Origin: Cladocopium goreaui
Taxonomy: Eukaryota; Sar; Dinophyceae; Suessiales; Symbiodiniaceae
Direction: 5' to 3'
DNA: 64,000 bases
Assembly (NCBI GenBank): GCA_947184155.2
Contig: CAMXCT020001002.1
Span: forward strand, 516,013-580,012
Made by a program: the position numbers and the translations under genes. The notes under the pieces were generated by a model. The model was not told where the DNA came from. It made no database searches and was given only the letters and a program-made list of their open reading frames with translations. Positions 20,530 through 40,776 of the stretch are shown piece after piece. Every line of letters begins with the position of its first letter. The first letter of the stretch is position 1.

Positions 20530-23301
20530 TCATGTCATACCTCTCGTGAAGTGTTCAAGATGACGTTTTTTGTCTGCTATAATAGTATCATACCATTCAT
20601 TGGTGAGCACAAATGAAACTGGGTTCACTGCTTGCTGGGCAGTGGCACGCTGATGAAGTGCTCTGAGCGCCCTTCGATGTGCGTCCAGATCCTCAGGAGG
20701 GACCTTCCTTCGGACTCGCCTGTCGGGGAAATTTCGTTCCCTCAGGTTGGTTTGCAAGGCATGTTCCGCTATATAGACTGCTGGCTGCTGGAATAAAACT
20801 CGCTCCTCGAATCTGTCAAGATGGACTGTCCACTCAGCAAACATATGGTTGTGTGACTGTTGCTTCCTGAGTCGCGCCTCTGTTTGATGAAGGCTCCCAT
20901 TCATATGCCACAAACGTAAAAGACTGTAATTGGAAGGCCAGTCAAGTGGGCACAGTGTGGCTGTTTCTTTCCATTTCTCGGGGGTAAGCCCTTCTGGAGA
21001 AGGAATGATCACCTCCAGAATAGTACGATTCGATCCGAGTGGTTGGAGACCTCTCATCATACATGGTTCAACGAGCCCTGCGGTGTACCCATGGATGAGC
21101 TCCTGGAAGCTTCCAGCCATTCGAAAGTCTTCATCCAACCCCAGGTGAAAACCAGGCAAATTTGTAGAAACAAATTTGACTGCTTGGAGCAGCTGTTTTT
21201 CTCCTTCCGCGGAAAGCTCGTCACAGGAACGTTTCGGGCACGTGAGGTTGATTTCTTGAGGTTTCTGTGCATTCTCAGGAGCATGCTCGAGGAGTTTGGG
21301 AGCAATTTTACTGGCCCAACTAGCCGGAAACCATGCCAAGAGGGCAGAGGCTCCACCCGTAAGGTCCACTAACCCAGTAGTGCGCCGATGCGGCCGATCT
21401 GTTACTAAAACTTTAACAGGGCCACTCGGCGCTCGACTCCGATTCACCTCGGAGCTCTCGCGGGCTGAGCCAATGAGTTCAGAAAGGATGGGCCGAAACC
21501 AGTATGTGGCATACAAAAGGCATTCAGTTTCTGGAGTCACCATGGATTCAGCCAATCTCATCAAAGAGCTCATCGCTTGGGCGAGCTTCTCTGCCAAACG
21601 AATTGTGAGAGCCCTGGCTGTTTGCATAAGGACATCCTCCACTCTGGCACCTTGCCCGCGCAACCACAGTTCGCCAGCCACACTGAGCAAGACACGTGCA
21701 AACTTTTCTTGGATGGCAATTAAAGACAAGGTCAATCTCGCCTGAAGCCATAGCGGCGGGAGAATGCCAAGGTTTTCTGGTATGCAGAATGGGTTTCCGT
21801 CAAGTTGGGTATTGTCAAGTAAGATGGCTAGCTTATCAGCTGCGCTCAAGATCTCGTCCTCAGAGGGATCTTCAGCTGCTTCAGGTATGGGTGGACACCA
21901 TGAGATGGTAGGATCTTCTGGATCACTTTCTCCATGGGTAGAGGCTGCTTCTTCATCCGAGGAGGGGTCGCTCACTGTGTCTCTTGCACCTTCCGGGCTT
22001 GCAAGTTTCATCGTGCCTGGATCAAACTGGCGATCGAGTGTGGCCAAAAGCTCTGGTTGCAGCCGATGGGCATCAAAGTAATGGATACCAGGGATGACAA
22101 CGAGCTGTCGATCCTGTATACCAACATGAAAGAACACCTTGTGACCTCTATGTCGATGAACTAGGGCAGGAGACCCATTGTAAGCTGCACAAAGCCAGAG
22201 GGGAGATCTGTAACCATCAGCAGCGTAACCATATAAGTATTCACGATCAATTGAGCAGGGGAAAAATCCGCTGGTCGTCAATACATGGTCACGTGTGCGG
22301 GGCTCTAGCGCTGCAAGGACGTTGGGGGGAAGCCGTAGCCTGTCTCTGCATGCCACTACCAACCGATATCGTCTCCACGCTCGTGTGCCATTGATGGTCA
22401 CTATCATGGCAATAGCAAGGGGCGATTTATCTTGGGGAGTAAAGGGTACCGCTAATCCCCAGTCCAGTATGGTACATCTATCGCTAGGGTAGTTTGTAGG
22501 GCCACGGTACTGAATATTACGGCCTTTCAGAGTGAAATATCCGTAATGGTAGACCCCTAGTGTCTGAGCCATTCCAACCAAGCCTGCCATGTCGAGAGGC
22601 GAGACTATATAGGTGTGGTCAATGGCTCTTGTCAGCGCTACAGTTGCACGTCCATAGCAGTCCTCGCGCTCGTCTGCTGTTGAATCTCTCCGTCCTCCAC
22701 TGAGAAAACCTACCCCTGTTTGAACAATGACAGCAATGCGTGCTGTCGCTCCCGCAGCAGAGGAGGTGGTGGAAACTCGCAGCCCTCCATACCACTCGGT
22801 CTGAAAGCCGTGTTGGAGTAGCAACTTATGTACATCCGTACGGTTGCACAAGACAAGCAGCTGCGAGGTCGCTCCCTGTTGCAAGTTACGATAATAATTC
22901 TTCAGGTGGATACAAAAGGCAACCACATCCTCAACTGCAGACCTAAGATCCTTAGGTGCTTTCCACAATACTGTGCGGAAGCCTCCGATGGCAACAGTGG
23001 ACTCATGTGGCACGAAATGGCCAATGTAGATGTGGTTAGACTCATGGAGGACTAGCTCCGGATATCGAACTGCAACGATCGCTTGGTAGGTCAGCATTGA
23101 AACTCGCGAACTGTTAGGGAGAATGATTCCCCATCGGTGAGGGCCACAGAGTCCAGCTGCCTCAAGGGTCGTGGTGCTCTCAGGTACGCCAAACTCCTCT
23201 GGTGCTGTGGCAATCAACAAGACTGCGAGCACCGCTGCAATCAGACTGCTGTGTGCATCCAACTGGCAAGAACCAGTTTGGTGATTCTTATCTTGAAATA
23301 C
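20530..23301 (-). pseudogene. SF1 helicase, C-terminal part, cut by the repeat array
   Basis: A minus frame of about 920 codons. The first nine codons of the open frame (23,328-23,302) come from repeat module A, so the true upstream exons are missing. Residues numbered from 23,328: a helicase 2A-like region follows at about 60-180. Motif V-like VGFL lies at 206-209, and a motif VI-like block with CYGRATVALTRA at about 224-235 resembles the UPF1/ZNFX1-type signature VALTRA. The rest is a long unclassified C-terminal region with an acidic Ser/Asp/Glu linker (about 455-500). Walker A and B are absent because the N-terminal half is not here. Helicases of this type unwind RNA or DNA with ATP. As it stands it is a gene fragment, unless a splice joins it to exons beyond the array. 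I saw none at 56-64 kb. Confidence 0.6.
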
Positions 23302-23311
23302 GGGGGGGGCT

Positions 23312-23636
23312 GTGTCCAGGGGCTTCAAAATTGAAGTGCAAAAGCGGCGCCAGTTTTGGGGTCCACCTTATCGGCCAGGAAATTACAAAAGACGAGTTGG
23401 CAAGGCTCAAGGGCCAGCGCTCCGACTTGCGCAAAGCAATGCGAGAGAATCGCAAGGCAGCTAAGAATGCAGCAAAGCGGAAGAAGCGACTTGTCAAGGC
23501 GCTGTCCATGCAGATTTACGCAGTGCAAAGAAATCTTGGTGGAAGTCGTTTATACTGTCTGCTTGCTAAAACTGGTTTATGGTCCTTGCGGACAGCGAAT
23601 GTAAGCAGCGTTTCTAAGGACAAAGTGCTAGGTTAA
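23312..23636 (+). CDS. Basic coiled-coil ORF of module A, copy 1
   Basis: The plus frame contains EITKDELARLKGQRSDLRKA and then RENRKAAKNAAKRKKRLVKA, a highly basic helical segment. The frame enters from module B or flanking sequence, so the start is unknown. It stops at 23,636. The end of the basic segment (KRLVKA) fits directly to the exon AAKMLSTADLK at 24,833, so the two may be exons of one protein with the minisatellite in the intron. Basic coiled-coil segments of this kind also begin the module B transposase ORF. Function unknown. Near 23,618 copy 1 differs by small changes (CTAAGGACAAAG), which change its C-terminus. Confidence 0.4.
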
Positions 23637-23940
23637 AAGATACAGAGAACAAATGTGAGCCCGATGTTTTCAAGCAGTTTGGAACAAAGTAAGAGGTCAA
23701 AAAGAACCCCGAACTGGCGAATGTGCAAAGGTAAAACGGATTTGAGTTTGTTGCTTGGAGACACCCCTGTCAGTCCACGTTTGAGTTTGTCGCTTGGAGA
23801 CACCCCTGTCAGTCCACTCCCTGTACAAGGAGATTGCAGGTCGCAGGTGTGACCTGGAAGGGTCGTAGGTGGAGGTTTGAGGGTCGTAGGCGGGCTTGCA
23901 GGGTTGCAGGTAGGGTGTACCTTACACACCGTGGAGGTGG

Positions 23941-24379
23941 TACACCTTAAACACTGGTGTGGTTCACCTTAAACACCGGGGGTGTGGTACACCTTAAACA
24001 CCGGTGTGGTTCGCCTTAAACACCAGGGTGTGGTACACCTTAAACACCGGTGTGGTTCACCTTCCAACACCAGGGGTGTGGTACACCTTAAACACCGGTG
24101 TGGTTCACCTTAAACACCAGGGGTGTGGTACACCTTAAACACCGGTGTGGTTCACCTTAAACACCAGGGTGTGGTACACCTTAAACACCGGTGTGGTTCA
24201 CCTTAAACACCAGGGGTGTGGTACACCTTAAACACCGGTGTGGTTCACCTTAAACACCAGGGTGTGGTACACCTTAAACACCGGTGTGGTTCACTTTAAA
24301 CACCAGGGGTGTGGTACACCTTAAACACCGGTGTGGTTCACCTTAAACACCAGGGGTGTGGTACACCTTAAACACCGGG
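23941..24379 (+). repeat. 47-bp minisatellite in module A, copy 1
   Basis: About nine units of the same family as 17,078-17,505, with the same 5' flank. Length 439 bp, against 391, 440 and 345 bp in copies 2-4. The differences are close to multiples of the unit, so this is a VNTR within the array. Confidence 0.95.
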
Positions 24380-24832
24380 ATTTGAGGCCGTAGGTTTGAC
24401 CTGGACGGGCGGTAGGTAGACCCGTGAGGGCGGTAGGCGGTAGGTTGTGTTTCGACACCGGGCTTTGTTTGGGGCCTTGCTGCTTGTGGGCTGGTTAGTC
24501 TACACCGCGCGGTTGCCACAGTGCGCTTGTTTGGGGTCGCAGGCTTGGCCTTGAAGGGTTGTAGGTGCAGCGGTGCGGGATGTTGGTGTGCTGATTGTGG
24601 TTTGAAGGTGGCCAGATATAGGTTCTTAATTTGGGAGCTTGAAACGCGTAGTTCTCCAAGACCACATGGGCAGCATTCCCCCATAGTATTGCCACCGATG
24701 TTTGGGTGGCAAGCAGATGTTTCTCTTAACCTTCGGTGGAATCGCTTGGATCTTTTCTCGTAGGGGTCTAGTTGACCATAAAGCGTTTGAATGTTAGTGG
24801 CGAATCTGTGTACCAGTCTGTTGTTCCTGCAG

Positions 24833-25012
24833 GCGGCCAAAATGTTGTCCACCGCAGATTTGAAGCTCCTGGTCGAAGCCAAGGAGGCAGGGAGCATGTT
24901 TCAAAGGTTTTTCATACCGGGCCAGAGCAATGCTGTCCTGAGGCGGAGGCTGCAGAGTTGGCGAGAGCCCCCAACTAGGCGTGGTAGAGTTAGAGAGCCT
25001 GGTTGGTTTTGA
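24833..25012 (+). CDS. AAK-LS-DL exon-like ORF, copy 1
   Basis: Begins after a CTGCAG acceptor-like site and reads AAKMLSTADLKLLVEAKEAG, then a Phe/Arg-rich end (FQRFF, RRRLQSW) to a TGA at 25,012. Related to 16,877-16,993. Probably the second exon of the basic coiled-coil protein. Function unknown. Confidence 0.4.
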   Translation, partial: AAKMLSTADLKLLVEAKEAGSMFQRFFIPGQSNAVLRRRLQSWREPPTRRGRVREPGWF

Positions 25013-26457
25013 CTGCTGAACCAGTCATTCCAAGCTATGCAGCGTCCATTCTGTCAATGCCGTACCGAACCTGCGGCAGTTTCGTTTTTGATCATGTCCG
25101 TGTCACATTTGACTGAAAGAGAGAGAGCCTGCATTTGAAACACAGTAATAAAAGTGTTCTGTCTCAGAATGGACAGCGCCCATGCTATCAATGCCGCTCC
25201 GAGCCAACCTCATTGTTGTCGTTGTTTTGATTGTGACATGTGCTTGCAGGGAGATCGGGCAGAATGAGAGGTGCGTGAGGCTCGCAGGAGCCTTTGCCTC
25301 GCAGAGCATGGGAAACTACAGTTGCAGTGGTGCAGACCACAGGCCCCAAGGTACAGTTGGAGTGGCATAGATCACTCCCTTGAGTGGCCTTCGGTTGTGT
25401 AGCTGCTTTTCACTCTGCCCGGCTCGTGACACAGACGACCAAAGTGCGACAGCAAATGGGAAACTCGTCGCAACAGCCAGTTTGCTTGTAATTTGCCGCA
25501 CAGTGCTGGCCGATGATTGCGTATAACATAATCTGATCTGTCAAGCAAGGGATGAATATGGAATCGGGGCTTGCGAAACAAGATTTAGGAAACCCATTTT
25601 GTCAGCTAAACATCTTGTTTTGCCAGTTGTTGTCACAAAGGGTTTTTGGACCACATTGAACATTGAACAAGACTTATGAGACCTCTTCCCCATGCGCGCC
25701 TTTGGTTTTGGCAATCCTCGTCGGTAGAGTTAACTGGACAACCGTCTTTCTATGGGAAGAGATGTGAGCTTGAATTGCCTGAGGTTATAGATCCCGGGTA
25801 AGACTTCTGGACTTTATTATTTGTAGCCGTGACGAGGCCTGCAGTCTTGTAGTTGCAGCTTCGAGCACGGCCATTTCCTGTCCACCTGCAGCATGTTTGT
25901 ATGTTTCCTAGTTGTTCCTAGTTTGGTTAACATGTTTGCCGTGTCTTGTAGCAGTGCTGGGTTCCCAAGTCTGAAGTGTCAGAGTGGTAGGTCCTTGCAT
26001 GATGTACGGGAATGCATGTGGTGCTCGCGATTTTCTCTGTGTAGCTGATCAGCCGCTTCTGTCTCAGAAACTTTGACCTCAGGAGTCGGCAGTCATCTGT
26101 CAGCTTAGTGCAACACATGACGCGCATTTGCTTTTGACCATGGCAGCTCCTGGTTTTCTACAAACCGCATTTATAGCACGGTCATGTGATTAGCTTGGTT
26201 GCTTTGACAGCATTATGTCAGAGTCAGTCGTGACACTTCGAAGGTGTTGTAGTCGTAGTTGCGTGTCATCCTATAGCTACTTGCTTCCAGGTACACACGC
26301 GCCGACCCAATGCATCTCCAAGACGGTGCAGGCGGGGTGATGAAGTGGACGGGGGTCGACATGGACATGTACCGGTTCGCGACTCCGTAGTGTCAGGACC
26401 TGCCCCCTTCACCCCCGTAGACTCTTAGCGCCTTACTTCCCAATTCATTCTTAGTAG
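25013..26457. other. Gene-free upstream region of the Rep gene
   Basis: About 1.4 kb without a convincing coding frame on either strand, repeated in all A copies (35,178-36,700, 43,449-44,971, 51,642-53,164). It is conserved between copies as well as the genes are, which reflects recent amplification more than selection. Confidence 0.4.
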
Positions 26458-26653
26458 CTTGCGGAGGAGGTTCTTTCCCGACAGAAATAACATTGTATTT
26501 TTAGTTCGGGCGAAACCTCCTCCGCGTATTTTCCATTGCAAAAGCCACCTGATTTGGCTATTACTCCTCCGCAAGGGTTTACTCCAAACCTACTCCGCAC
26601 ATTGTTTCCAATCAGAACTAACGCGTTGCTTTGCAGTAAAACTTCCTCCGCTG
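26458..26653 (+). promoter_or_regulatory. Candidate rolling-circle origin: hairpin plus iterons, copy 1
   Basis: GCGGAGGAGGTT (26,461-26,472) and AACCTCCTCCGC (26,514-26,525) form a perfect 12-bp GC-rich stem. CCCGA/TCGGG adds an inner stem around an AT-rich loop (about 26,482-26,504). The core TCCTCCGC or TACTCCGC recurs at 26,564-26,575 (there as a perfect 12-bp inverse of 26,458-26,469), about 26,590-26,600 and 26,642-26,653. GC stem, AT loop and short repeats just upstream of rep are the known layout of CRESS-virus origins. The canonical nonanucleotide was not found in the loop. Confidence 0.5.
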
Positions 26654-26672
26654 ATGTCCTGTGAGGCAGTGG

Positions 26673-26684
26673 TTTTGGTTCAAG
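26673..26684 (+). other. DinoSL-like sequence fused to the Rep start codon, copy 1
   Basis: TTTTGGTTCAAG, which matches the 3' end of DinoSL at 11 of 12 positions, lies immediately before the Rep ATG. It repeats at 36,916, 45,187 and 53,380. It may be a spliced-leader relict from a retroposed mRNA. At 12 bases with one mismatch, chance is not excluded. Confidence 0.35.
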
Positions 26685-28079
26685 ATGGTAGCTTCCGCTG
26701 TGCAGGTGGCGAAACGCGCCTTAGTTTCCTTGTTGTTGGCGTTGGCCCACCAATATGGAGTCTGCGTGAAGGTCACGCGGGAGAGCCCTGATCCTTTGGT
26801 GGAGAAAGCTTTCCGGTGCATCATCAAGAAGGTGCACCCTGACAAAGGAGGCTGTGTGGAACACGCTCAGCAGTTGCAACGAGCGCGGGAGGAATGGCAA
26901 ACGGTGAAAGGGAGGAAGGACCCTGGTGGCCGACCAGCCCAAGCTTCCGCTATGTCTTTGGTAGGCAAGAAGGAGACAGGCCGCCAAGGGTATCGGATTC
27001 GTTCCGTTGCAGTGCTGTTGACGTACCATGGCGTGCAGCAGGATCAATGGCCAGCTTTCTTGACTTTTGTTCGTGATCATGTTGCTCATTGGGGAGTAGA
27101 GAAGTGGTGTGCTTCCATGGAGACATGTTCATCAGGCAAGCCACACGTCCACCTCATGGTGCAATTCCACAAAGCCTTAGACAGCCGTGTGGTTGATGTG
27201 TTTTCCTTTGCTGCTGCCAGACCAAATGCGAGCTCCACAGATCTCTGTGGTGAAGGGCTGTCTGGGCGACAGTTGCAACGGTCCATTGACCGGGGGATGT
27301 TTTACGTCTTCGCAGACAAAATCGGCACACTCTTTGGCAAGGATGGGTTGCCGTTCACAGAGGGCAATTATTTGCCATGCTGGGTTCGGTGTGAGAAGAC
27401 CTACCAAGTCCTGGGCAAGTGGCCGGAGACGTTGTGGAAGCAACGTAAAATCAGCTCAGCCACTTATGAGAAATTGCTTTATTTGACAAGAGATGGTGTG
27501 CTCTCACGCAAACGAAATTTAGATGCTTGCAAGGACCATGAGGATAGTGCAGCTTTGACTTTGGCCATGGCAGAGCGAGTTCAAAGGATTCGGTCCAACC
27601 CCAGCCTCTTCCGGCCGTTTCCGAAAGTGCCAGATGCTGAGGCTTGGCTCAAGCTTTTTCAAGCTGATGCCTTGCGCTACCCTATCTTGGTTGTGCTCGG
27701 GCCTTCCCGAGCAGGGAAAACTGAATGGGCCAAGAGCCTGTTCAAGCGACCTTTGGAACTGAAGATAGGAACTTTGGAGTTTTTCCCAGAGACCATGAGG
27801 CACTTTCAGCGGGCCGTACATGATGGATTGGTCCTTGATGATGTGAGAGATTTGAATTTCCTTGTCAGCCACCAGGAAAAGCTTCAGGGCAAGTATGATG
27901 CCTTAGTTGAATTCGGTTCAACTGCAGGTGGCACATGCGCATACCATCGCGATTTGTTTGGCGTGCCAGTGGTTGCAACAGTCAATTATTCAACGAAGAA
28001 TTTAGATTATTTGGAGAATCACGATTGGCTTGCCAACCCTGGAAACAGGGTGGTGGTAGTGCTAAGCGGTTCCAATTGA
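26685..28079 (+). CDS. rep: J-domain/HUH endonuclease/SF3 helicase fusion (CRESS-type Rep), copy 1
   Basis: 464 aa from the ATG at 26,685; the frame is open from 26,661, but the first ATG follows the DinoSL-like sequence. Residues about 20-80 form a J domain with helix II (EKAFRCIIKK) and the loop H51-P-D-K-G-G, which would recruit an Hsp70. Residues about 104-220 form an HUH nuclease: motif I VLLTYHG (110-116); motif II GKPHVHL with H154 and H156, and E146 at the geminivirus spacing; motif III FYVFADKIG with Tyr207. Residues about 310-464 form an SF3 helicase: Walker A GPSRAGKT (339-346), Walker B LVLDD (D385, D386) and motif C VVATVN (N434). Known Reps nick an origin hairpin, stay joined to the 5' end and unwind the template. 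The J domain fusion is unusual. No intron is evident. Expression and activity are inferred only. Confidence 0.85.
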   Translation: MVASAVQVAKRALVSLLLALAHQYGVCVKVTRESPDPLVEKAFRCIIKKVHPDKGGCVEHAQQLQRAREEWQTVKGRKDPGGRPAQASAMSLVGKKETGRQGYRIRSVAVLLTYHGVQQDQWPAFLTFVRDHVAHWGVEKWCASMETCSSGKPHVHLMVQFHKALDSRVVDVFSFAAARPNASSTDLCGEGLSGRQLQRSIDRGMFYVFADKIGTLFGKDGLPFTEGNYLPCWVRCEKTYQVLGKWPETLWKQRKISSATYEKLLYLTRDGVLSRKRNLDACKDHEDSAALTLAMAERVQRIRSNPSLFRPFPKVPDAEAWLKLFQADALRYPILVVLGPSRAGKTEWAKSLFKRPLELKIGTLEFFPETMRHFQRAVHDGLVLDDVRDLNFLVSHQEKLQGKYDALVEFGSTAGGTCAYHRDLFGVPVVATVNYSTKNLDYLENHDWLANPGNRVVVVLSGSN

Positions 28080-29317
28080 TTCTTAATTTGTTTTGCATAG
28101 GCTGACGCCCGACCTTCTTGCTAATGTGTTGAAAAAGGTGACATTTCATGTTTTGTCGCAGGTGGTCAAAACACATGTCCTGTTGTCTGCCTTTTCCCTG
28201 ATGTTTGTTTCGTGATTTGTTGCAAGTTCACCAGTTTGCTGCTGATGGTTCGACAGGTCATTTCAAACAGTTTCGAATCCAGTCAATGCAGCTTCTGATT
28301 TTGCCAACGTGTCAGCTGGTTTGATGTTTTCCTTTGGCATTTCTTTCTGTATTGACCATGTTGTGGCTGACTGTGGTTTCATTTGATCGACCTGGCAGGC
28401 TGAGACTTTGCGATTCAGCTGTGAGCTTCGACATTGCCTGGAGGTGCGCTTCCAAGGGCTATTTTGGGCAAGATCCGCACAGTTTTGAGTCCAGTCTTTG
28501 CTCCATGTGTCAGCAAGGTTTCGGCAGGTCCCTTCAAACAGTTTTGACTCCAGTCAATGCAGCTTCTGATTTTGCTAAAGTGTCAGCTGGTGCTTTTGCC
28601 CTTTGATGTTGTCCTTTTGCATTGGGTTTTGTGTTGACTGATACTTCTCCGAAATATCCGATACGTCAGCCAGCGTACCTAAACTTTTGCAGTTTTTATG
28701 CGCCCGTTTTTCTGTGTGGAACATGGCTGTTACCATGGAAGGTGCTGCTATTTGATCCCTTTAGAGTGTGAGTGCTGACGAGAGATCTTTGCCACTTGAT
28801 TTTTTAGAGGCGATGTTCTGCCAGAGAACGTGAGAAAGGTCAGGCTACCTGATTTTTAAATACTTACAAGCTTCTGTTTCTTGGCAATTTCCTAGAACTG
28901 CCGCTTCTGGATTTGAGCATGGCCCGGCCTTGGTGAAGCGTAGGCTTCTAAGCAAACACGAAACAATCAGAAGATCTTCAATGCTTAAGGTATGATGCAG
29001 GGATGATGGAACCATGTTGGAATGGAGCGCTGAGTCTTGAGTTTCAATGGCTGACATTATGACATCAAGAGAGTTTATTGACGCTTTGACTTTGTTTCAC
29101 ATTGTAGGTCGTACTGGAGCATGGGTGCCTGGAGAAGCCAGCAGCTGAGAAATGCCACAGCAGCAGACCGCCTGTGCGCATTTTGTTGTTGGTGTTGAGG
29201 GTTTCAATGACTGCTGCCGTTTGTTGTTGTGTCATACCTAGCGGCAACTTGTGTTCAAGCCTTAGACCTTAGAGTTTGCTACTGCCTGCGCAAGTTTTGT
29301 CTTGTGGAAGTGGTCGC
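28080..29317. other. Downstream region of module A, with an internal 100-bp direct repeat
   Basis: No gene is supported. A block with CCAGTCAATGCAGCTTCTGA and GTGTCAGCTGGT occurs twice (about 28,255-28,345 and 28,530-28,620). Equivalent regions lie at 38,323-39,560, 46,594-47,831 and 54,787-56,024. Confidence 0.5.
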
Positions 29318-29517
29318 CCATGCCGCCCAAAGCAGCTGCGAAAGCGAAGTCGAAGGCTGAGGACTTGGGATTGGGGGTTCCGTTGTGCATTGGACATGTA
29401 TTTTCAGTCAAGGTTTGGAACCCCAAAACGGGGTCCAGAAAGAGGCTTGAATTCCAGGGCCTCACTGAAAGACCTCCATTGTGCAGCTTCTGCAGCAAAG
29501 CCGAAAGCCAAATCTGA
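29318..29517 (+). CDS. Short ORF MPPKAAAKAKSKA crossing the A/B junction
   Basis: Starts with MPPKAAAKAKSKAEDLGLG and runs from A into B (LTERPPLCSFCSKAESQI, stop). It could be the first exon of the module B transposase gene, since it is followed by it on the same strand. In copy 4 the A part is followed by other sequence and ends LYITQIN. Copies also lie at 39,561-39,760 and 47,832-48,031. The ORF contains WNPKTGSRK, read from a GGGGTCC-type repeat. Function unknown. Confidence 0.4.
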
Positions 29518-29601
29518 ATTGTTGACGATTTTTTGGCTCAAACATTTGCTGCTCGGATAGGTGCACTGCTATTCTTGATTGCGCGCGCACGCTTGTTAGC
29601 C

Positions 29602-30209
29602 ATGTGTGACCAACTAGCGGAGGTGCAAAAGAAGATTGCTAACTTGCAACGGCATATCAGAAGAGCCAAGCAGAGAGAAACAGCTCGGGAAGAAATTGTT
29701 GACCAACAAGCTCTGGTTGTCTTTATTTTTCAGGCTATCGTGCCGATGTCGCTGGTCACTTCCACCTTTCCAGATCCAAACGTTGCATGTCGCTGGACAG
29801 TGCAGTGGCTCACGTTGAGTGGGGGTACATCAGAGCTCCTTTGGAAGACAAGGTCATGCTCATGTTGGACCCTTACCGACAATATCCGATACATCGGCTA
29901 CTGGCAGCCTTTCGCTACCTAGTGCTGTTCCAACTGCGTGAGTGGGTTCAGAAAATGAATTATGAATTTGGAGTGGCCCCATCGCGGCGCATGATGGTCG
30001 ACCGCGTCCAGCATTTGCTGCCCGACAGTTGGCCTGTTGACTTGCAGGCACGGCTACTTCGCCCATTAGCAACTGCACGCGGCCAGCGCAGGTACCTTGC
30101 GGCCTTCAGGAATCGCTTTGGGTGCAAACTTGGCAAGCTACGGACGAGTCCACCAATGTCGTTGCAGGAGAAGCAGTCCAAGGCACGGGTGGTTGATTGG
30201 CTGGGTTAG
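29602..30209 (+). pseudogene. Transposase N-terminal exon, copy B1, frameshifted
   Basis: The ATG at 29,602 (MCDQLAEVQKKIANLQRHI) starts a basic coiled coil. A T run at about 29,725-29,730 has five T's where the other B copies have six, and the frame shifts. The rest of the domain, including the DNA-binding-like end (RRYLAAFRNRFGCKLGKL), stays open in the other frame (29,787-30,209). It is therefore a broken copy. Confidence 0.6.
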
Positions 30210-30400
30210 TGTTGTGCAAGCAGATTTGTAAAGGTTTCTTTGAGATGCTGTGTTGACATTCGGTCAATATTTGGGTATTCCGGTAAAATGCTGATTTGCT
30301 GTTTGTAGGACCATGACAAATCACAACCTCCGGTTCTTGCAGTTTTGAAGCATACAGTGCAAGTTTTGGATCTCATTTGTACGCATTTTTGATTCCAAAT

Positions 30401-30530
30401 GCGGACCCCGTTTTGGGGTCCAAAAAGCGGACCCCAAAGTGCAGATGACCAAGGTTTCTCACTTCCTAGCCATTGCTTGTCATTTTTGGGTCCGGAAAAT
30501 AGACCCCAAAACGGGGTCCGCTTTTTGGAC
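30401..30530. repeat. GGGGTCC/GGACCCC inverted repeat, copy B1
   Basis: Left arm GCGGACCCCGTTTTGGGGTC (30,401-30,420) and its exact reverse complement in the right arm near 30,510-30,525, with further pairing outside, form a hairpin of about 130 bp. It lies between the two transposase exons. Read through, the arms give GSAFW-like peptides. It resembles a MITE in an intron. Confidence 0.7.
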
Positions 30531-30545
30531 TGAAAATGATCATTG

Positions 30546-31447
30546 TCAAGCGGCCTTTGGCAGGCGATGGCCTTTTGGCAATGGTGCAATTATGCATTGA
30601 AGGATGCTGGTGACGAGCCTTTAGTTATCAACATGGATGAGTCCAGCATTGGGTTTCACTGGGGCGCGTTGTCTGGGACAGTTGTTCGACAAGGTGCCCC
30701 GATGGATAAAGTTAAATCGCAGGCTCTCAAAGCCAGGGCCACATACATTTGCGCTGTCACCCATGATCCTGAAGTCCAGCAGCTTCTGCCCCAGGTGTTG
30801 CTGGGCAACAAGCGTCTTTTCCCAGCTGCGTTTGCCCGGCATGCTGCGGAGCTGTGTCCGCGGGTGTGGTTTGGAGAGAGAACTCCGCATGGAATACGCA
30901 CCGGTTGATGGCCAGATACTTGCGACTCCTCTGTGACAGATTGGGGGCTATTTTGGAATCCCGCCAGGTGTTGTTGTTGCTAGACTTGGCACCGTGCCAC
31001 CTGCATGATTCTTTGTTTGATTTGGCTTATTCCCTGGGATTGCGTCTCCTATTTGTGCCTCCTGGCATGACGTCCTTACTTCAGCCATGCGACACTCACA
31101 TCTTTGCTGCTTTCAAGCATAATGTGCAAGAGTCATGGAGACGAAGAAGGGCTGCAGCTCCAGATGGACAGGTGAGCTTGGAACTGTGGTTGGAAATTGT
31201 AGCAAATGCCACCAAAAAGCTGTCGTCGAAGCCATGGAAGCATGCGTTTGAAAGTGATGGTATTCTTGGATATCAGCATCGTATTTCTTCTCCCTTGCTC
31301 AGCAAGCTCGGATGGGTGGATGCGCCGCCCGTTCCCTCAACAATGCCTTCTGGTGGTTTGCCTGACTGCCTGTTCCCTTTGAAGTGGCAAGGAAATGCGG
31401 CAAAATACATCCAATGGAACCCTCATGCGGTCCGCACCCTAGACTGA
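30546..31447 (+). pseudogene. Transposase catalytic exon, copy B1, frameshifted
   Basis: Same domain as 40,789-41,694, but the bases at about 30,864-30,870 read GGGTGTGG where the intact copies read GGGTGGTGG. This single-base loss moves the frame between the first and second catalytic Asp. The two halves are open as 30,543-30,908 and 30,854-31,447. Confidence 0.75.
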
Positions 31448-31620
31448 GGGTACAACTTGTGGGAAAATAGTTTCTGCGCTGGCTGCACTGTGCAGCTTCT
31501 GCAGCAAAGCCGAAAGCCAAATCTGAATTGTTGACGATTTTTTGGCTCAAACATTTGCTGCTCGGATAGGTGCACTGCTATTCAATGCTATTCTTGATTG
31601 CGCGCGCACGCTTGTTAGCC

Positions 31621-32229
31621 ATGTGTGACCAACTAGCGGAGGTGCAAAAGAAGATTGCTAACTTGCAACGGCATATCAGAAGAGCCAAGCAGAGAGAAAC
31701 AGCTCGGGAAGAAATTGTTGGCCAACAAGCTCTGGTTGTCTTTATTTTTTCAGGCTATCGTGCCGATGTCGCTGGTCACTTCCACCTTTCCAGATCCAAA
31801 CGTTGCATGTCGCTGGACAGTGCAGTGGCTCACGTTGAGTGGGAGTACATCAAAGCTCCTTTGGAAGACAAGGTCATGCTCATGTTGGACCCTTACCGAC
31901 AATATCCGATACATCGGCTACTGGCAGCCTTTCGCTACCTAGTGCTGTTCCAACTGCGTGAGTGGGTTCAGAAAATGAATTATGAATTTGGAGTGGCCCC
32001 ATCGCGGCGCATGATGGTCGACCGCGTCCAGCATTTGCTGCCCGACAGTTGGCCTGTTGACTTGCAGGCGCGGCTACTTCGCCCATTAGCAACTGCACGC
32101 GGCCAGCGCAGGTACCTTGCGGCCTTCAGGAATCGCTTTGGGTGCAAACTTGGCAAGCTACGGACGAGTCCACCAATGTCGTTGCAGGAGAAGCAGTCCA
32201 AGGCACGGGTGGTTGATTGGCTGGGTTAG
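31621..32229 (+). CDS. Transposase N-terminal exon, copy B1', intact frame
   Basis: MCDQLAEVQKKIANLQRHI starts a basic coiled coil. A region with SGYRADVAGHFHL and a basic helical DNA-binding-like end (RRYLAAFRNRFGCKLGKL) follow, to a TAG at 32,229. In the pogo/Tigger class this position is taken by helix-turn-helix domains that bind the ends of the element. The frame is open, but the catalytic exon of this copy is broken. Confidence 0.55.
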   Translation: MCDQLAEVQKKIANLQRHIRRAKQRETAREEIVGQQALVVFIFSGYRADVAGHFHLSRSKRCMSLDSAVAHVEWEYIKAPLEDKVMLMLDPYRQYPIHRLLAAFRYLVLFQLREWVQKMNYEFGVAPSRRMMVDRVQHLLPDSWPVDLQARLLRPLATARGQRRYLAAFRNRFGCKLGKLRTSPPMSLQEKQSKARVVDWLG

Positions 32230-32420
32230 TGTTGTGCAAGCAGATTTGTAAAGGTTTCTTTGAGATGCTGTGTTGACATTCGGTCAATATTTGGGTATTC
32301 CGGTAAAATGCTGATTTGCTGTTTGTAGGACCATGACAAATCACAACCTCCGGTTCTTGCAGTTTTGAAGCATACAGTGCAAGTTTTGGATCTCATTTGT
32401 ACGCATTTTTGATTCCAAAT

Positions 32421-32551
32421 GCGGACCCCGTTTTGGGGTCCAAAAAGCGGACCCCAAAGTGCAGATGACCAAGGTTTCTCACTTCCTAGCCAAATTGCTT
32501 GTCATTTTGGGTCCGGAAAATAGACCCCAAAATGGGGTCCGCTTTTTGGAC
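32421..32551. repeat. GGGGTCC/GGACCCC inverted repeat, copy B1'
   Basis: As at 30,401-30,530, with one substitution in the right arm (CAAAATGGGG). Confidence 0.7.
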
Positions 32552-32567
32552 TGAAAATGATCATTGT

Positions 32568-33472
32568 CAAGCGGCCTTTGGCAGGCGATGGCCTTTTGGC
32601 AATGGTGCAATTATGCATTGAAGGATGCTGGTGACGAGCTTTTAGTTATCAACATGGATGAGTCCAGCATTGGGTTTCACTGGGGCGCGTTGTCTGGGAC
32701 AGTTGTTCGACAAGGTGCCCCGATGGATGGATAAAGTTAAATCGCAAGCTCTCAAAGCCAGGGCCACATACATTTGCGCTGTCACCCATGATCCTGAAGT
32801 CCAGCAGCTTCTGCCCCAGGTGTTGCTGGGCAACAAGCGTCTTTTCCCAGCTGCGTTTGCCCGGCATGCTGCGGAGCTGTGTCCGCGGGTGTGGTTTGGA
32901 GAGAGAACTCCGCATGGAATACGCACCGGTTGATGGCCAGATACTTGCGACTCCTCTGTGACAGATTGGGGGCTATTTTGGAATCCCGCCAGGTGTTGTT
33001 GTTGCTAGACTTGGCACCGTGCCACCTGCATGATTCTTTGTTTGATTTGGCTTATTCCCTGGGATTGCGTCTCCTATTTGTGCCTCCTGGCATGACGTCC
33101 TTACTTCAGCCATGCGACACTCACATCTTTGCTGCTTTCAAGCATAATGTGCAAGAGTCATGGAGACGAAGAAGGGCTGCAGCTCCAGATGGACAGGTGA
33201 GCTTGGAACTGTGGTTGGAAATTGTCGCAAATGCCACCAAAAAGCTGTCGTCGAAGCCATGGAAGCATGCGTTTGAAAGTGATGGTATTCTAGGATATCA
33301 GCATCGTATTTCTTCTCCCTTGCTCAGCAAGCTCGGATGGGTGGATGCGCCGCCCGTTCCCTCAACAATGCCTTCTGGTGGTTTGCCTGACTGCCTGTTC
33401 CCTTTGAAGTGGCAAGGAAATGCGGCAAAATACATCCAATGGAACCCTCATGCGGTCCGCACCCTAGACTGA
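32568..33472 (+). pseudogene. Transposase catalytic exon, copy B1', frameshifted
   Basis: Carries the GGGTGTGG deletion of B1 (near 32,888) and in addition a four-base GATG insertion at about 32,725, so the frame is broken twice. The second and third catalytic Asp remain in the frame 32,879-33,472. Confidence 0.75.
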
Positions 33473-33520
33473 GGGTACAACTTGTGGGAAAATAGTTTGT
33501 GCGCTGCACTGGGGGGGCTG

Positions 33521-33901
33521 TGTCCAGGGGCTTCAAAATTGAAGTGCAAAAGCGGCGCCAGTTTTGGGGTCCACCTTGTCGGCCAGGAAATTACAAAAGA
33601 CGAGTTGGCAAGGCTCAAGGGCCACCGCTCCGACTTGCGCAAAGCAATGCGAGAGAATCGCAAGGCAGCTAAGAATGCAGCAAAGCGGAAGAAGCGACTT
33701 GTCAAGGCGCTGTCCATGCAGATTTACGCAGTGCAAAGAAATCTTGGTGGAAGTCGTTTATACTGTCTGCTTGCTAAAGCTGGTTTATGGTCCTTGCGGA
33801 CAGCGAATGTAAGCAGCGTTTCTAAAAGACAAAGTGCTAGGTTAAAAGATACAGAGAACAAATGTGAGCTCGATGTTTTCAAGCAGTTTGGAACAAAGTA
33901 A
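33521..33901 (+). CDS. Basic coiled-coil ORF of module A, copy 2
   Basis: As copy 1, but it keeps the longer C-terminus (SVSKRQSARLKDTENKCELD to FGTK). The open frame begins upstream in module B (33,482), so it may be read from B into A. Confidence 0.4.
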   Translation, partial: CPGASKLKCKSGASFGVHLVGQEITKDELARLKGHRSDLRKAMRENRKAAKNAAKRKKRLVKALSMQIYAVQRNLGGSRLYCLLAKAGLWSLRTANVSSVSKRQSARLKDTENKCELDVFKQFGTK

Positions 33902-34153
33902 GAGGTCAAAAAGAACCCCGAACTGGCGAATGTGCAAAGGTAAAACGGATTTGAGTTTGTCGCTTGGAGACACCCCTGTCAGTCCACGTGCATTTGAGTT
34001 TGTCGCTTGGAGACACCCCTGTCAGTCCACTCCCTGTACAAGGAGATTGCAGGTCGCAGGTGTGACCTGCAAGGGTCGTAGGTGGAGGTTTGAGGGTCGT
34101 AGGCGGGCTTGCAGGGTTGCAGGTAGGGTGTACCTTACACACCGTGGTGGTGG

Positions 34154-34544
34154 TACACCTTAAACACTGGTGTGGTTCACCTTAAACACCGGGGGTGTGG
34201 TACACCTTAAACACCGGTGTGGTTCACCTTAAACACCAGGGTGTGGTACACCTTAAACACCGGTGTGGTTCACCTTAAACACCAGGGGTGTGGTACACCT
34301 TAAACACCGGTGTGGTTCACCTTAAACACCAGGGTGTGGTACACCTTAAACACCGGTGTGGTTCACCTTAAACACCAGGGGTGTGGTACACCTTAAACAC
34401 CGGTGTGGTTCACCTTAAACACCAGGGTGTGGTACACCTTAAACACCGGTGTGGTTCACCTTAAACACCAGGGGTGTGGTACACCTTAAACACCGGTGTG
34501 GTTCACCTTAAACACCAGGGGTGTGGTACACCTTAAACACCGGG
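34154..34544 (+). repeat. 47-bp minisatellite in module A, copy 2
   Basis: 391 bp, about eight units, one unit fewer than copies 1 and 3. Confidence 0.95.
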
Positions 34545-34997
34545 ATTTGAGGCCGTAGGTTTGACCTGGACGGGCGGTAGGTAGACCCGTGAGGGCGGTA
34601 GGCGGTAGGTTGTGTTTAGACACCGGGCTTTGTTTGGGGCCTTGCTGCTTGTGGGCTGGTTAGTCTACACCGCGCGGTTGCCACAGTGCGCTTGTTTGGG
34701 GTCGCAGGCTTGGCCTTGAAGGGTTGTAGGTGCAGCGGTGCGGGATGTTGGTGTGCTGATTGTGGTTTGAAGGTGGCCAGATATAGGTTCTTAATTTGGG
34801 AGCTTGAAACGCGTAGTTCTCCAAGACCACATGGGCAGCATTCCCCCATAGTATTGCCACCGATGTTTGGGTGGCAAGCAGATGTTTCTCTTAACCTTCG
34901 GTGGAATCGCTTGGATCTTTTCTTGTAGGGGTCTAGTTGACCATAAAGCGTTTGAATGTTAGTGGCGAATCTGTACACCAGTCTGTTGTTCCTGCAG

Positions 34998-35177
34998 GCG
35001 GCCAAAATGTTGTCCACCGCAGATTTGAAGCTCCTGGTCGAAGCCAAGGAGGCAGGGAGCATGTTTCAAAGGTTTTTCATACCGGGCCAGAGCAATGCTG
35101 TCCTGAGGCGGAGGCTGCAGAGTTGGCGAGAGCCCCCAACTAGGCGTGGTAGAGTTAGAGAGCCTGGTTGGTTTTGA
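34998..35177 (+). CDS. AAK-LS-DL exon-like ORF, copy 2
   Basis: Same peptide as at 24,833-25,012. Confidence 0.4.
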   Translation, partial: AAKMLSTADLKLLVEAKEAGSMFQRFFIPGQSNAVLRRRLQSWREPPTRRGRVREPGWF

Positions 35178-36700
35178 CTGCTGAACCAGTCATTCCAAGC
35201 TCACATTTCATACTAAGAGAGGTCCCGCACTGGAGTGGCAGGAAAGGTCTGCATTGGTATGTTTTGGTTGAGAATGAGCCATGCAGCGTCCATTCTGTCA
35301 ATGCCGTACCGAACCTGCGGCAGTTTCGTTTTTGATCATGTCCGTGTCACATTTGACTGAAAGAGAGAGAGCCTGCATTTGAAACACAGTAATAAAAGTG
35401 TTCTGTCTCAGAATGGACAGCGCCCATGCTATCAATGCCGCTCCGAGCCAACCTCATTGTTGTCGTTGTTTTGATTGTGACATGTGCTTGCAGGGAGATC
35501 GGGCAGAATGAGAGGTGCGTGAGGCTCGCAGGAGCCTTTGCCTCGCAGAGCATGGGAAACTACAGTTGCAGTGGTGCAGACCACAGGCCCCAAGGTACAG
35601 TTGGAGTGGCATAGATCACTCACTTGAGTGGCCTTCGGTTGTGTAGCTGCTTTTCACTCTGCCCGGCTCGTGACACAGACGACCAAAGTGCGACAGCAAA
35701 TGGGAAACTCGTCGCAACAGCCAGTTTGCTTGTAATTTGCCGCACAGTGCTGGCCGATGATTGCGTATAACATAATCTGATCTGTCAAGCAAGGGATGAA
35801 TATGGAATCGGGGCTTGCGAAACAAGATTTAGGAAACCCATTTTGTCAGCTAAACATCTTGTTTTGCCAGTTGTTGTCACAAAGGGTTTTTGGACCACAT
35901 TGAACATTGAACAAGACTTATGAGACCTCTTCCCCATGCGCGCCTTTGGTTTTGGCAATCCTCGTCGGTAGAGTTAACTGGACAACCGTCTTTCTATGGG
36001 AAGAGATGTGAGCTTGAATTGCCTGAGGTTATAGATCCCGGGTAAGACTTCTGGACTTTATTATTTGTAGCCGTGACGAGGCCTGCAGTCTTGTAGTTGC
36101 AGCTTCGAGCACAGCCATTTCCTGTCCACCTGCAGCATGTTTGTATGTTTCCTAGTTGTTCCTAGTTTGGTTAACATGTTTGCCGTGTCTTGTAGCAGTG
36201 CTGGGTTCCCAAGTCTGAAGTGTCAGAGTGGTAGGTCCTTGCATGATGTACGGGAATGCATGTGGTGCTCGCGATTTTCTCTGTGTAGCTGATCAGCCGC
36301 TTCTGCCTCAGAAACTTTGACCTCAGGAGTCGGCAGTCATCTGTCAGCTTAGTGCAACACATGACGCGCATTTGCTTTTGACCATGGCAGCTCCTGGTTT
36401 TCTACAAACCGCATTTATAGCACGGCCATGTGATTAGCTTGGTTGCTTTGACAGCATTATGTCAGAGTCAGTCGTGACACTTCGAAGGTGTTGTAGTCGT
36501 AGTTGCGTGTCATCCTATAGCCACTTGCTTCCAGGTACACACGCGCCGACCCAATGCATCTCCAAGACGGTGCAGGCGGGGTGATGAAGTGTACGGGTGT
36601 CGACATGGACATGTACCGGTTCGCGACTCCGTAGTGTCAGGACCTGCCCCTTCACCCCCGTAGACTCTTAGCGCCTTACTTCCCAATTCATTCTTAGTAG

Positions 36701-36896
36701 CTTGCGGAGGAGGTTCTTTCCCGACAGAAATAACATTGTATTTTTAGTTCGGGCGAAACCTCCTCCGCGTATTTTCCATTGCAAATGCCACCTGATTTGG
36801 CTATTACTCCTCCGCAAGGGTTTACTCCAAACCTACTCCGCACATTGTTTCCAATCAGAACTAACGCGTTGCTTTGCAGTAAAACTTCCTCCGCTG
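36701..36896 (+). promoter_or_regulatory. Candidate rolling-circle origin, copy 2
   Basis: Stem arms 36,704-36,715 and 36,757-36,768. Iteron-like repeats follow to 36,896. Stem, loop and iterons are unchanged from copy 1. Confidence 0.5.
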
Positions 36897-36927
36897 ATGT
36901 CCTGTGAGGCAGTGGTTTTGGTTCAAG

Positions 36928-38322
36928 ATGGTAGCTTCCGCTGTGCAGGTGGCGAAACGCGCCTTAGTTTCCTTGTTGTTGGCGTTGGCCCACCAATATG
37001 GAGTCTGCGTGAAGGTCACGCGGGAGAGCCCTGATCCTTTGGTGGAGAAAGCTTTCCGGTGCATCATCAAGAAGGTGCACCCTGACAAAGGAGGCTGTGT
37101 GGAACACGCTCAGCAGTTGCAACGAGCGCGGGAGGAATGGCAAACGGTGAAAGGGAGGAAGGACCCTGGTGGCCGACCAGCCCAAGCTTCCGCTATGTCT
37201 TTGGTAGGCAAGAAGGAGACAGGCCGCCAAGGGTATCGGATTCGTTCCGTTGCAGTGCTGTTGACGTACCATGGCGTGCAGCAGGATCAATGGCCAGCTT
37301 TCTTGACTTTTGTTCGTGATCATGTTGCTCATTGGGGAGTAGAGAAGTGGTGTGCTTCCATGGAGACATGTTCATCAGGCAAGCCACACGTCCACCTCAT
37401 GGTGCAATTCCACAAAGCCTTAGACAGCCGTGTGGTTGATGTGTTTTCCTTTGCTGCTGCCAGACCAAATGCGAGCTCCACAGATCTCTGTGGTGAAGGG
37501 CTGTCTGGGCGACAGTTGCAACGGTCCATTGACCGGGGGATGTTTTACGTCTTCGCAGACAAAATCGGCACACTCTTTGGCAAGGATGGGTTGCCGTTCA
37601 CAGAGGGCAATTATTTGCCATGCTGGGTTCGGTGTGAGAAGACCTACCAAGTCCTGGGCAAGTGGCCGGAGACGTTGTGGAAGCAACGTAAAATCAGCTC
37701 AGCCACTTATGAGAAATTGCTTTATTTGACAAGAGATGGTGTGCTCTCACGCAAACGAAATTTAGATGCTTGCAAGGACCATGAGGATAGTGCAGCTTTG
37801 ACTTTGGCCATGGCAGAGCGAGTTCAAAGGATTCGGTCCAACCCCAGCCTCTTCCGGCCGTTTCCGAAAGTGCCAGATGCTGAGGCTTGGCTCAAGCTTT
37901 TTCAAGCTGATGCCTTGCGCTACCCTATCTTGGTTGTGCTCGGGCCTTCCCGAGCAGGGAAAACTGAATGGGCCAAGAGCCTGTTCAAGCGACCTTTGGA
38001 ACTGAAGATAGGAACTTTGGAGTTTTTCCCAGAGACCATGAGGCACTTTCAGCGGGCCGTACATGATGGATTGGTCCTTGATGATGTGAGAGATTTGAAT
38101 TTCCTTGTCAGCCACCAGGAAAAGCTTCAGGGCAAGTATGATGCCTTAGTTGAATTCGGTTCAACTGCAGGTGGCACATGCGCATACCATCGCGATTTGT
38201 TTGGCGTGCCAGTGGTTGCAACAGTCAATTATTCAACGAAGAATTTAGATTATTTGGAGAATCACGATTGGCTTGCCAACCCTGGAAACAGGGTGGTGGT
38301 AGTGCTAAGCGGTTCCAATTGA
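36928..38322 (+). CDS. rep: J-domain/HUH/SF3 Rep, copy 2
   Basis: 464 aa, identical in sequence to copy 1, including HPDKGG, E146/H154/H156, Tyr207, GPSRAGKT and the DD of Walker B. Preceded by the same DinoSL-like sequence at 36,916-36,927. Confidence 0.85.
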   Translation: MVASAVQVAKRALVSLLLALAHQYGVCVKVTRESPDPLVEKAFRCIIKKVHPDKGGCVEHAQQLQRAREEWQTVKGRKDPGGRPAQASAMSLVGKKETGRQGYRIRSVAVLLTYHGVQQDQWPAFLTFVRDHVAHWGVEKWCASMETCSSGKPHVHLMVQFHKALDSRVVDVFSFAAARPNASSTDLCGEGLSGRQLQRSIDRGMFYVFADKIGTLFGKDGLPFTEGNYLPCWVRCEKTYQVLGKWPETLWKQRKISSATYEKLLYLTRDGVLSRKRNLDACKDHEDSAALTLAMAERVQRIRSNPSLFRPFPKVPDAEAWLKLFQADALRYPILVVLGPSRAGKTEWAKSLFKRPLELKIGTLEFFPETMRHFQRAVHDGLVLDDVRDLNFLVSHQEKLQGKYDALVEFGSTAGGTCAYHRDLFGVPVVATVNYSTKNLDYLENHDWLANPGNRVVVVLSGSN

Positions 38323-39844: not shown

Positions 39845-40453
39845 ATGTGTGACCAACTAGCGGAGGTGCAAAAGAAGATTGCTAACTTGCAACGGCATAT
39901 CAGAAGAGCCAAGCAGAGAGAAACAGCTCGGGAAGAAATTGTTGACCAACAAGCTCTGGTTGTCTTTATTTTTTCAGGCTATCGTGCCGATGTCGCTGGT
40001 CACTTCCACCTTTCCAGATCCAAACGTTGCATGTCGCTGGACAGTGCAGTGGCTCACGTTGAGTGGGAGTACATCAGAGCTCCTTTGGAAGACAAGGTCA
40101 TGCTCATGTTGGACCCTTACCGACAATATCCGATACATCGGCTACTGGCAGCCTTTCGCTACCTAGTGCTGTTCCAACTGCGTGAGTGGGTTCAGAAAAT
40201 GAATTATGAATTTGGAGTGGCCCCATCGCGGCGCATGATGGTCGACCGCGTCCAGCATTTGCTGCCCGACAGTTGGCCTGTTGACTTGCAGGCGCGGCTA
40301 CTTCGCCCATTAGCAACTGCACGCGGCCAGCGCAGGTACCTTGCGGCCTTCAGGAATCGCTTTGGGTGCAAACTTGGCAAGCTACGGACGAGTCCACCAA
40401 TGTCGTTGCAGGAGAAGCAGTCCAAGGCACGGGTGGTTGATTGGCTGGGTTAG
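39845..40453 (+). CDS. Transposase N-terminal exon, copy B2
   Basis: Intact frame from the ATG at 39,845 to a TAG at 40,453 (202 codons). Basic coiled coil first, then the DNA-binding-like segment. GGTTAGTG at its end (about 40,446-40,453) could be a GT splice donor to the catalytic exon, with acceptors such as TGTTTGTAG (about 40,552). A DinoSL-like TTTTGGCTCAA lies at 39,774-39,784. Confidence 0.6.
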   Translation: MCDQLAEVQKKIANLQRHIRRAKQRETAREEIVDQQALVVFIFSGYRADVAGHFHLSRSKRCMSLDSAVAHVEWEYIRAPLEDKVMLMLDPYRQYPIHRLLAAFRYLVLFQLREWVQKMNYEFGVAPSRRMMVDRVQHLLPDSWPVDLQARLLRPLATARGQRRYLAAFRNRFGCKLGKLRTSPPMSLQEKQSKARVVDWLG

Positions 40454-40644
40454 TGTTGTGCAAGCAGATTTGTAAAGGTTTCTTTGAGATGCAGTGTTGA
40501 CATTCGGTCAATATTTGGGTATTCCGGTAAAATGCTGATTTGCTGTTTGTAGGACCATGACAAATCACAACCTCCGGTTCTTGCAGTTTTGAAGCATACA
40601 GTGCAAGTTTTGGATCTCATTTGTACGCATTTTTGATTCCAAAT

Positions 40645-40776
40645 GCGGACCCCGTTTTGGGGTCCAAAAAGCGGACCCCAAAGTGCAGATGACCAAGGTT
40701 TCTCACTTCCTAGCCAAATTGCTTGTCATTTTTGGGTCCGGAAAATAGACCCCAAAATGGGGTCCGCTTTTTGGAC
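40645..40776. repeat. GGGGTCC/GGACCCC inverted repeat, copy B2
   Basis: As in the other B copies. It lies in the presumed intron. Confidence 0.7.

What the first reader, a model, noticed from the sequence alone, without database searches (positions are those of the whole stretch)
26685..28079. J domain fused to a geminivirus/CRESS-type HUH-SF3 Rep in a dinoflagellate chromosome
Seen directly: HPDKGG in a J-domain context, E-x7-H-x-H, a Tyr-containing motif III, GPSRAGKT, LVLDD and VVATVN in one open frame, four times. CRESS Reps normally start with the nuclease. A J domain is known at the N-terminus of polyomavirus large T, which is a different lineage, so this would be a convergent gain of an Hsp70-recruiting domain by a Rep. 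It hints that the replicon uses host chaperones for complex assembly or disassembly.
Basis: partly seen in the sequence, partly recalled or inferred. Interest (0 to 1): 0.92.

Follow-up and report, generated by a model that had tools for sequence, protein, structure and literature searches.

The report
Chaperone-recruiting replication protein inside paired transposons
A dinoflagellate-type genome carries dozens of copies of a jumping DNA element whose gene joins a J domain, known for recruiting chaperones, to a geminivirus-like replication enzyme, next to a transposase element, which looks like a hybrid between a cut-and-paste transposon and a rolling-circle replicon.

Summary
In detail: window 26685-28079 (+) encodes 464 aa with J, HUH and SF3 modules, four near-identical times. 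Relatives in Durusdinium, Symbiodinium, Polarella and Karenia share the layout (HPD in 116 of 120 listed), so the fusion is an old family, not an assembly accident. Profiles and models support a J domain, a geminivirus-like HUH nuclease and a Rep-type AAA+ helicase.
The context goes further. The gene lies in a ~6.2-kb element (U) with fixed ends, inserted at TA (9 of 9 distinct left flanks, 16 of 17 right flanks); uninterrupted paralogues show TA once. U is arrayed head to tail with D, a 2-kb DDE_1 transposase element, itself found TA-flanked. Two diverged J-Rep families (52%, 73%) also have a homologous DDE gene upstream. About 150-160 bp before Rep lies an origin-like inverted repeat whose 12-bp arms differ between families A and C yet stay complementary, with iteron-like repeats; family B does not show it clearly.
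Best reading: a Tc1/mariner-type two-component transposon whose partner carries a J-Rep rolling-circle replicon. Modules and elements: strong. Copying of excised circles and Hsp70 use: inferred.

The parts
26685..28079 (+). J-HUH-SF3 Rep, copy 1 (464 aa): J domain aa 1-78, low-confidence linker 80-97, HUH nuclease about 103-240, helical linker 245-305, SF3/AAA+ about 310-464
36928..38322 (+). J-Rep copy 2
45199..46593 (+). J-Rep copy 3
53392..54786 (+). J-Rep copy 4 (differs from copy 1 by at least one residue, L to S)
23300..29482 (+). element U, unit 1, left end at T|ACGGGGGGGG, right end CCATTGT
33508..39725 (+). element U, unit 2
41730..47996 (+). element U, unit 3 (6267 bp, used as reference unit)
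50018..56189 (+). element U, unit 4; right end of the array at a TA
29483..31482 (+). element D copy (DDE_1 transposase element)
31483..33507 (+). element D, second copy in tandem with the first (D-D junction)
39726..41729 (+). element D between U2 and U3
47997..50017 (+). element D between U3 and U4
40789..41694 (+). DDE_1 domain ORF of D (301 aa; PF03184 E 5.1e-13); a 225-aa ORF at 39776-40453 just upstream is homologous to the matching ORF in family B (27%)
26461..26525 (+). origin-like inverted repeat: 12-bp perfect arms GCGGAGGAGGTT/AACCTCCTCCGC, loop core AAATAACATTGTATT at 26485-26499; the arms are inverted iterons
26562..26651 (+). further iteron-like repeats (CTCCTCCGC, CTACTCCGC, TTCCTCCGC) between inverted repeat and Rep start
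26404..26433 (+). 30-bp motif CCCCTTCACCCCCGTAGACTCTTAGCGCCT, 28 of 30 identical in family C, weaker in B (81% over 27, E 0.19)
23919..24378 (+). 47-bp repeat array of U1 (others at 34132-34543, 42354-42814, 50642-51007)

Best explanation
The gene is a J-domain Rep: an N-terminal J domain, a geminivirus-like HUH nicking domain and an SF3 AAA+ helicase. It is carried by a ~6.2-kb TA-inserting element, U, which is moved together with a partner element, D, that encodes the DDE_1 (Tc1/mariner/pogo-class) transposase. Shown: the modules, fixed ends, TA target, homologous DDE genes upstream of three diverged J-Rep families, mixed U/D arrays, and an iteron-flanked inverted repeat upstream of Rep in families A and C. 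Inferred: the D transposase excises U and D; their ends join through a shared 3-nt CTG/TTG into circles or head-to-tail chains; J-Rep nicks the hairpin of the circular form and drives rolling-circle copying; the J domain recruits Hsp70 to load or remodel the Rep oligomer; products reinsert at TA, leaving U/D arrays.
Against: No circle, transcript or nicking was observed. The arms are inverted iterons, so their co-change may reflect Rep binding rather than a hairpin. Family B has only a 6-bp stem that folds no better than shuffles (z 0.00), and C's fold is only modestly better (z -1.96). In family B the U-D junction keeps a TA, so the single 3-nt joint is seen in family A only, and the one outer left end read in B is preceded by CA, not TA. 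The four window units differ by 3-17 of ~4190 bases against a median of 11 for unlinked copies, so this array is not one fresh burst; within-array pairs are somewhat closer overall (mean 7.4, permutation p 0.03, with badly aligned copies inflating the rest). Whole-chain Foldseek TM-scores are low (about 0.2-0.3), so domain placement differs or is badly predicted. Motif III spacing is unusual. 22 of 175 J-profile hits lack HPD. In L027 the U right end is not followed by TA.
Confidence: 0.55

Rival explanations
1. U is simply a non-autonomous DDE transposon that once captured an endogenous CRESS-type Rep; the Rep persists by selfish copying or serves another role (regulation, defence), and no rolling-circle step occurs. 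Arrays form by unequal crossing-over and nested insertion.
For: TA insertion and a DDE partner explain the spread; window units are not clonal; no circle seen.
Against: HUH and SF3 catalytic positions are invariant or at least 90% conserved in the 65 aligned proteins; dN is far below dS in HUH (0.17 vs 1.84, A-C) and in J (0.27 vs 3.6, saturated); inverted repeat and iterons kept in A and C; Rep and DDE gene neighbours in three families.
Confidence: 0.27
2. An integrated ssDNA virus (true CRESS virus with a J-Rep) that uses a DDE transposase to integrate and is, or recently was, infectious.
For: Rep of geminivirus/genomovirus type, origin-like region.
Against: 6 of the 10 non-Rep ORFs of at least 70 aa in unit 2 were searched and none matches Pfam at 0.1, 4 of these also not PHROGs at 0.01; a 184-aa ORF of unit 1 has no Pfam match at 0.01. 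Three ORFs under the Rep frame, one at the left end, and spliced genes were not tested. IMG/VR: 51 pattern matches, none confirmed as a relative; no match in phage records.
Confidence: 0.08
3. The J-like N-terminus is only a structural or oligomerisation module and does not recruit Hsp70.
For: 22 of 175 J-profile hits lack HPD but keep the rest; weak stand-alone fold score.
Against: HPD kept in 153 of 175 and in 116 of 120 first-search proteins; H, P and D are among the 90%-or-more columns, though not alone there.
Confidence: 0.3
4. Contamination or assembly artefact.
For: Tandem identical units are assembly-prone.
Against: Copies lie in many contigs, some over 1 Mb, with different flanks; relatives carry the names of several dinoflagellates.
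Confidence: 0.01

Closest known systems
Rep of Geminiviridae/Genomoviridae (Cressdnaviricota)
   Same: HUH motifs, SF3 Walker A/B and motif C, best HUH structure matches TYLCV and wheat dwarf virus Rep, inverted repeat and iterons upstream of rep (general layout recalled)
   Different: N-terminal J domain, Y-x4-K spacing, chromosomal TA-flanked element, no capsid gene seen
Polyomavirus large T antigen
   Different: HUH catalytic residues are retained here (large T's origin-binding domain lacks nuclease activity: recalled); the J profile scores cellular DnaJ chains better (1e-5) than T antigens (0.01-0.11)
Tc1/mariner/pogo-class DDE_1 transposons
   Same: PF03184 transposase, TA target, short terminal repeats in D, 3-nt end signature (3-nt stagger of mariner elements: recalled)
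   Different: Paired with a Rep-bearing partner element and arranged in mixed arrays
Teratorn (piggyBac-herpesvirus fusion; PMC10175614, passages seen)
   Same: Cut-and-paste transposon combined with a DNA replicon
   Different: Different transposase class and a rolling-circle-type Rep; that 2023 review calls Teratorn the first example of a cut-and-paste transposon-DNA virus fusion
Helitrons and Replitrons
   Same: HUH proteins in eukaryotic mobile elements (recalled; only a search listing seen)
   Different: Here the HUH protein has an SF3 helicase and a J domain, and insertion follows a DDE/TA pattern

Membership tests
CRESS-type Rep | HUH motif II and motif III Tyr | tested here: met
   E146, Y207, K212 invariant and H154/H156 at 90% or more in 65 aligned proteins; fold match to TYLCV Rep; Tyr assigned by sequence only, spacing Y-x4-K
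CRESS-type Rep | SF3 helicase motifs C-terminal to HUH | tested here: met
   GPSRAGKT, LVLDD, VVATVN; Vientovirus Rep and AAV Rep68 chain matches; Z alone does not separate it from other AAA+
CRESS-type Rep | Hairpin origin with iterons near rep | tested here: inconclusive
   12-bp arms and iterons in A and C, 0 of 200 shuffles each; family B not above shuffles; nicking not testable here
CRESS DNA virus | Capsid gene on a small circular genome | tested here: inconclusive
   No match among the unspliced ORFs tested; circularity not testable here
J-domain protein | Three-helix J fold with HPD between helices II and III | tested here: met
   Model helices 5-24, 36-50, 58-77 with HPD 51-53; PF00226 in 63 of 65; stand-alone fold match weak
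J-domain protein | Stimulates Hsp70 ATPase | not testable with these tools
   needs biochemistry
Polyomavirus large T | Sequence relationship of J and helicase to large T | tested here: inconclusive
   J matches T antigens only at 0.01-0.11; no helicase-region hit to large T among the 60 of 67 matches shown; fold matches only
Tc1/mariner/pogo-class transposon (D) | DDE transposase | tested here: met
   PF03184 E 5.1e-13
Tc1/mariner/pogo-class transposon (U) | TA target-site duplication | tested here: met
   left and right sides of the empty site come from two insertions (L027, L029)
Tc1/mariner/pogo-class transposon (D) | TA target-site duplication | tested here: inconclusive
   TA on both sides of one standalone copy and at 2 further left ends; no empty site read
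Tc1/mariner/pogo-class transposon (U) | Terminal inverted repeats bound by the transposase | tested here: inconclusive
   Ends CTGGGGGGGC and CAATGGAGGT are only loosely inverted; binding not tested

The most novel reading that the evidence does not exclude
A new kind of eukaryotic mobile element: a two-component cut-and-paste transposon in which one component is a chromosome-resident rolling-circle replicon. Its J-Rep uses host Hsp70 to amplify excised circles before they reinsert as arrays. Its J-HUH-SF3 protein is a catalytically competent analogue, conceivably a relative of the ancestor, of polyomavirus large T.
Probability: 0.4. Interest if true: 0.92.

Novelty: new variant of a known kind. 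Interest (0 to 1): 0.8.

Why it matters
It shows the J-HUH-SF3 order of polyomavirus large T in a Rep that keeps its nicking residues, in a different lineage. That makes the question of why replication initiators recruit chaperones testable outside animal viruses. It also joins cut-and-paste transposition with a rolling-circle-type replicon in dinoflagellate chromosomes, and offers a possible route to tandem arrays there. Nearly identical, intact copies in a group of algae that includes cultured species (recalled) make the mechanism open to experiment.

Full report
What is there. The frame at 26685-28079 (+) encodes 464 aa without a stop, and the same ORF lies four times in the window. A window self-comparison shows tandem units of about 8.2 kb, mostly 99.4-99.7% identical outside the repeat arrays, with one extra 2-kb duplication in the first. 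P0001 alone matches Pfam DnaJ below the curated cut-off (15.2 bits against 27.8) and no relevant PDB chain. The family settles it. 506 proteins match at E<=0.01 among the 7994 candidates scored; 120 are listed, with names from Durusdinium trenchii, Symbiodinium and Polarella glacialis and one EukProt entry from Karenia brevis. Of 65 aligned proteins (the query and 64 that I chose of the 120) 63 match PF00226 at E<=0.1. A profile of the 65 finds many J-domain chains in the PDB (best 1.1e-5), then geminivirus Rep nuclease domains at 0.021 and 0.06.

How general the fusion is. Among the 233 homologues in hand from two searches, all match the HUH-SF3 profile and 175 the J profile; in all 175 the J comes first, and all 153 proteins with at least 90 residues before a covered HUH start carry it. 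Both profiles were built from part of this set. HPD is present in 153 of 175; in the examples printed of the 22 without it, the loop is changed or shortened. Of the 120 first-search proteins 116 have HPD in the first 200 residues.

Selection. Between family A (window) and family C (L036, 73%), NG86 gives dN 0.27 and dS 3.6 for J, 0.17 and 1.84 for HUH, and dN 0.11 for SF3 with dS not computable; the linker has dN 0.70. Synonymous sites are near saturation, so ratios are rough, but J and HUH look constrained and the linker does not.

Mobile element U. In the own genome 91 matches were scored of 750 candidates: 48 full-length copies at 99-100%, of which 47 have no stop, truncated copies, one at 73% and 18 listed at 52%. 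Comparing 20 fetched stretches, 15 of them family A, with the unit shows breakpoints returning at the same two places. Leaving out L002 and L013, which duplicate window copies, and counting only ends that match the end motif, 38 right ends were read: 19 continue into D, 19 into other DNA with 17 distinct flanks, and 16 of the 17 start with TA. All 9 distinct non-D left flanks have TA before the end. The exception, L027, abuts another repeat. The target interrupted on the left in L027 and on the right in L029 is found uninterrupted in three paralogues with a single TA, so the insertion duplicates TA; the two sides come from different insertions.

Element D. D encodes a DDE_1 domain (E 5.1e-13), and 49 matches to D are listed. 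A D at C6073 has TA at both ends (CTGTGCAGC...GCTGCACTG), and D has TA on its left at C3816 and C4785. Thus D is an element of its own and can begin an array. In family A the D-D, D-U and U-D junctions keep only one 3-nt CTG or TTG where two ends meet. This is what joining of 3-nt complementary overhangs would leave; the 3-nt stagger of mariner elements is recalled. Family B, at 52% Rep identity, has three right ends with different flanks and the junction to its own D, all starting with TA; its one outer left end read is preceded by CA. Its DDE ORF, 39.5% identical to D's, ends just before the U left end. Family C has a homologous DDE ORF upstream on the same strand (38% to A, 44% to B). 33 D relatives were found in the protein collection, some named Durusdinium trenchii; a J-Rep (P0010) and a D relative (P0239) both have a longest contig of 6744 bases, perhaps the same one.

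Origin. About 150-160 bp before the Rep start, family A has GCGGAGGAGGTT...AACCTCCTCCGC and family C has CGTGGAGTAATT...AATTACTCCACG, each a perfect 12-bp inverted repeat with a 41-42-nt loop; none of 200 dinucleotide shuffles of either stretch reaches 12. Compared without gaps, by hand, the arms differ at eight of twelve positions, each with the partner changed too; the aligner instead sets a gap in one arm, so the number of independent changes is uncertain. The loops share AAATAACA-TGTATT. The arms are inverted copies of each family's direct repeats, CTCCTCCGC in A and TACTCC(A/G)C in C, so co-change may also reflect Rep binding. In A the fold is far better than shuffles (z -5.91), in C modestly (z -1.96), and in B a 6-bp stem is no better (z 0.00). 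B's loop has TAGTATTAA, close to the CRESS nonanucleotide (recalled). 36 of 37 family A copies keep the stem. The 47-bp repeat arrays are something else: they are 97-99% identical between A and B despite 52% Rep identity, and a 34-mer from them occurs 2114 times in the genome with up to one mismatch against 0 for the reversed control, so they seem to move or convert independently.

Array history. The four window units differ pairwise by 3-17 of about 4190 bases; 656 pairs from different places have median 11. Within-array pairs (10 in all) average 7.4, closer than in 97% of label shuffles, but badly aligned copies inflate the comparison. Some variants are shared across places. The window array is thus not a single fresh burst of copying.

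Mechanism. Established: modules, ends, TA insertion of U, D/U neighbourhood in three families, origin-like region in two. Inferred: excision of both by D's transposase, end joining into circles or chains, J-Rep nicking and helicase-driven copying of circles, Hsp70 recruitment for loading or remodelling of the Rep oligomer (by analogy with large T, recalled), and reinsertion at TA. I give this chain 0.55, with the passenger-Rep rival at 0.27.

Known or new. Ten literature searches listed nothing on a J-domain Rep; the library lacks most subscription papers and all bioRxiv preprints. A 2023 review names Teratorn as the first example of a fusion between a cut-and-paste transposon and a DNA virus (passages of PMC10175614). 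I file the protein as a new variant of CRESS-type Rep. The element pair may deserve a category of its own if circles are shown.

Noticed in passing
window 14553-14764 (-) and 17002-17505 (+): The same 47-bp repeat occurs outside U, in two arrays of opposite orientation about 2.2 kb apart; no Rep was found between them. Possibly a separate element.
   Followed up: partly
window 12183-14011: Minisatellite of about 204 copies of AATGTATGC.
   Followed up: no
window 20530-23328 (-): 932-aa ORF with no Pfam or PHROGs match at 0.01 whose 5' end runs into U1; it may be a host gene cut by the insertion.
   Followed up: partly
window 687-2711 (-): 674-aa ORF that looks to me like a tyrosine recombinase C-terminus (recalled motifs); no Pfam match at 0.01.
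   Followed up: partly
L027 7010-9901 and contigs C6064, C5800, C5792: Sequence right of U in L027 belongs to another repeat with about 7.16-kb spacing in several contigs.
   Followed up: no
P0235, P0237, P0246: D relatives sit on public contigs of 2010-2011 bases at most, nearly the D-D period of 2009; could be collapsed tandems or circles.
   Followed up: no
window 56189-56975: Direct repeat of about 428 bp (98%) just right of the array.
   Followed up: no
L022: A U right end is followed by a few bases of D and, 113 bases on, by a second U right end: an internal rearrangement at the array edge.
   Followed up: no
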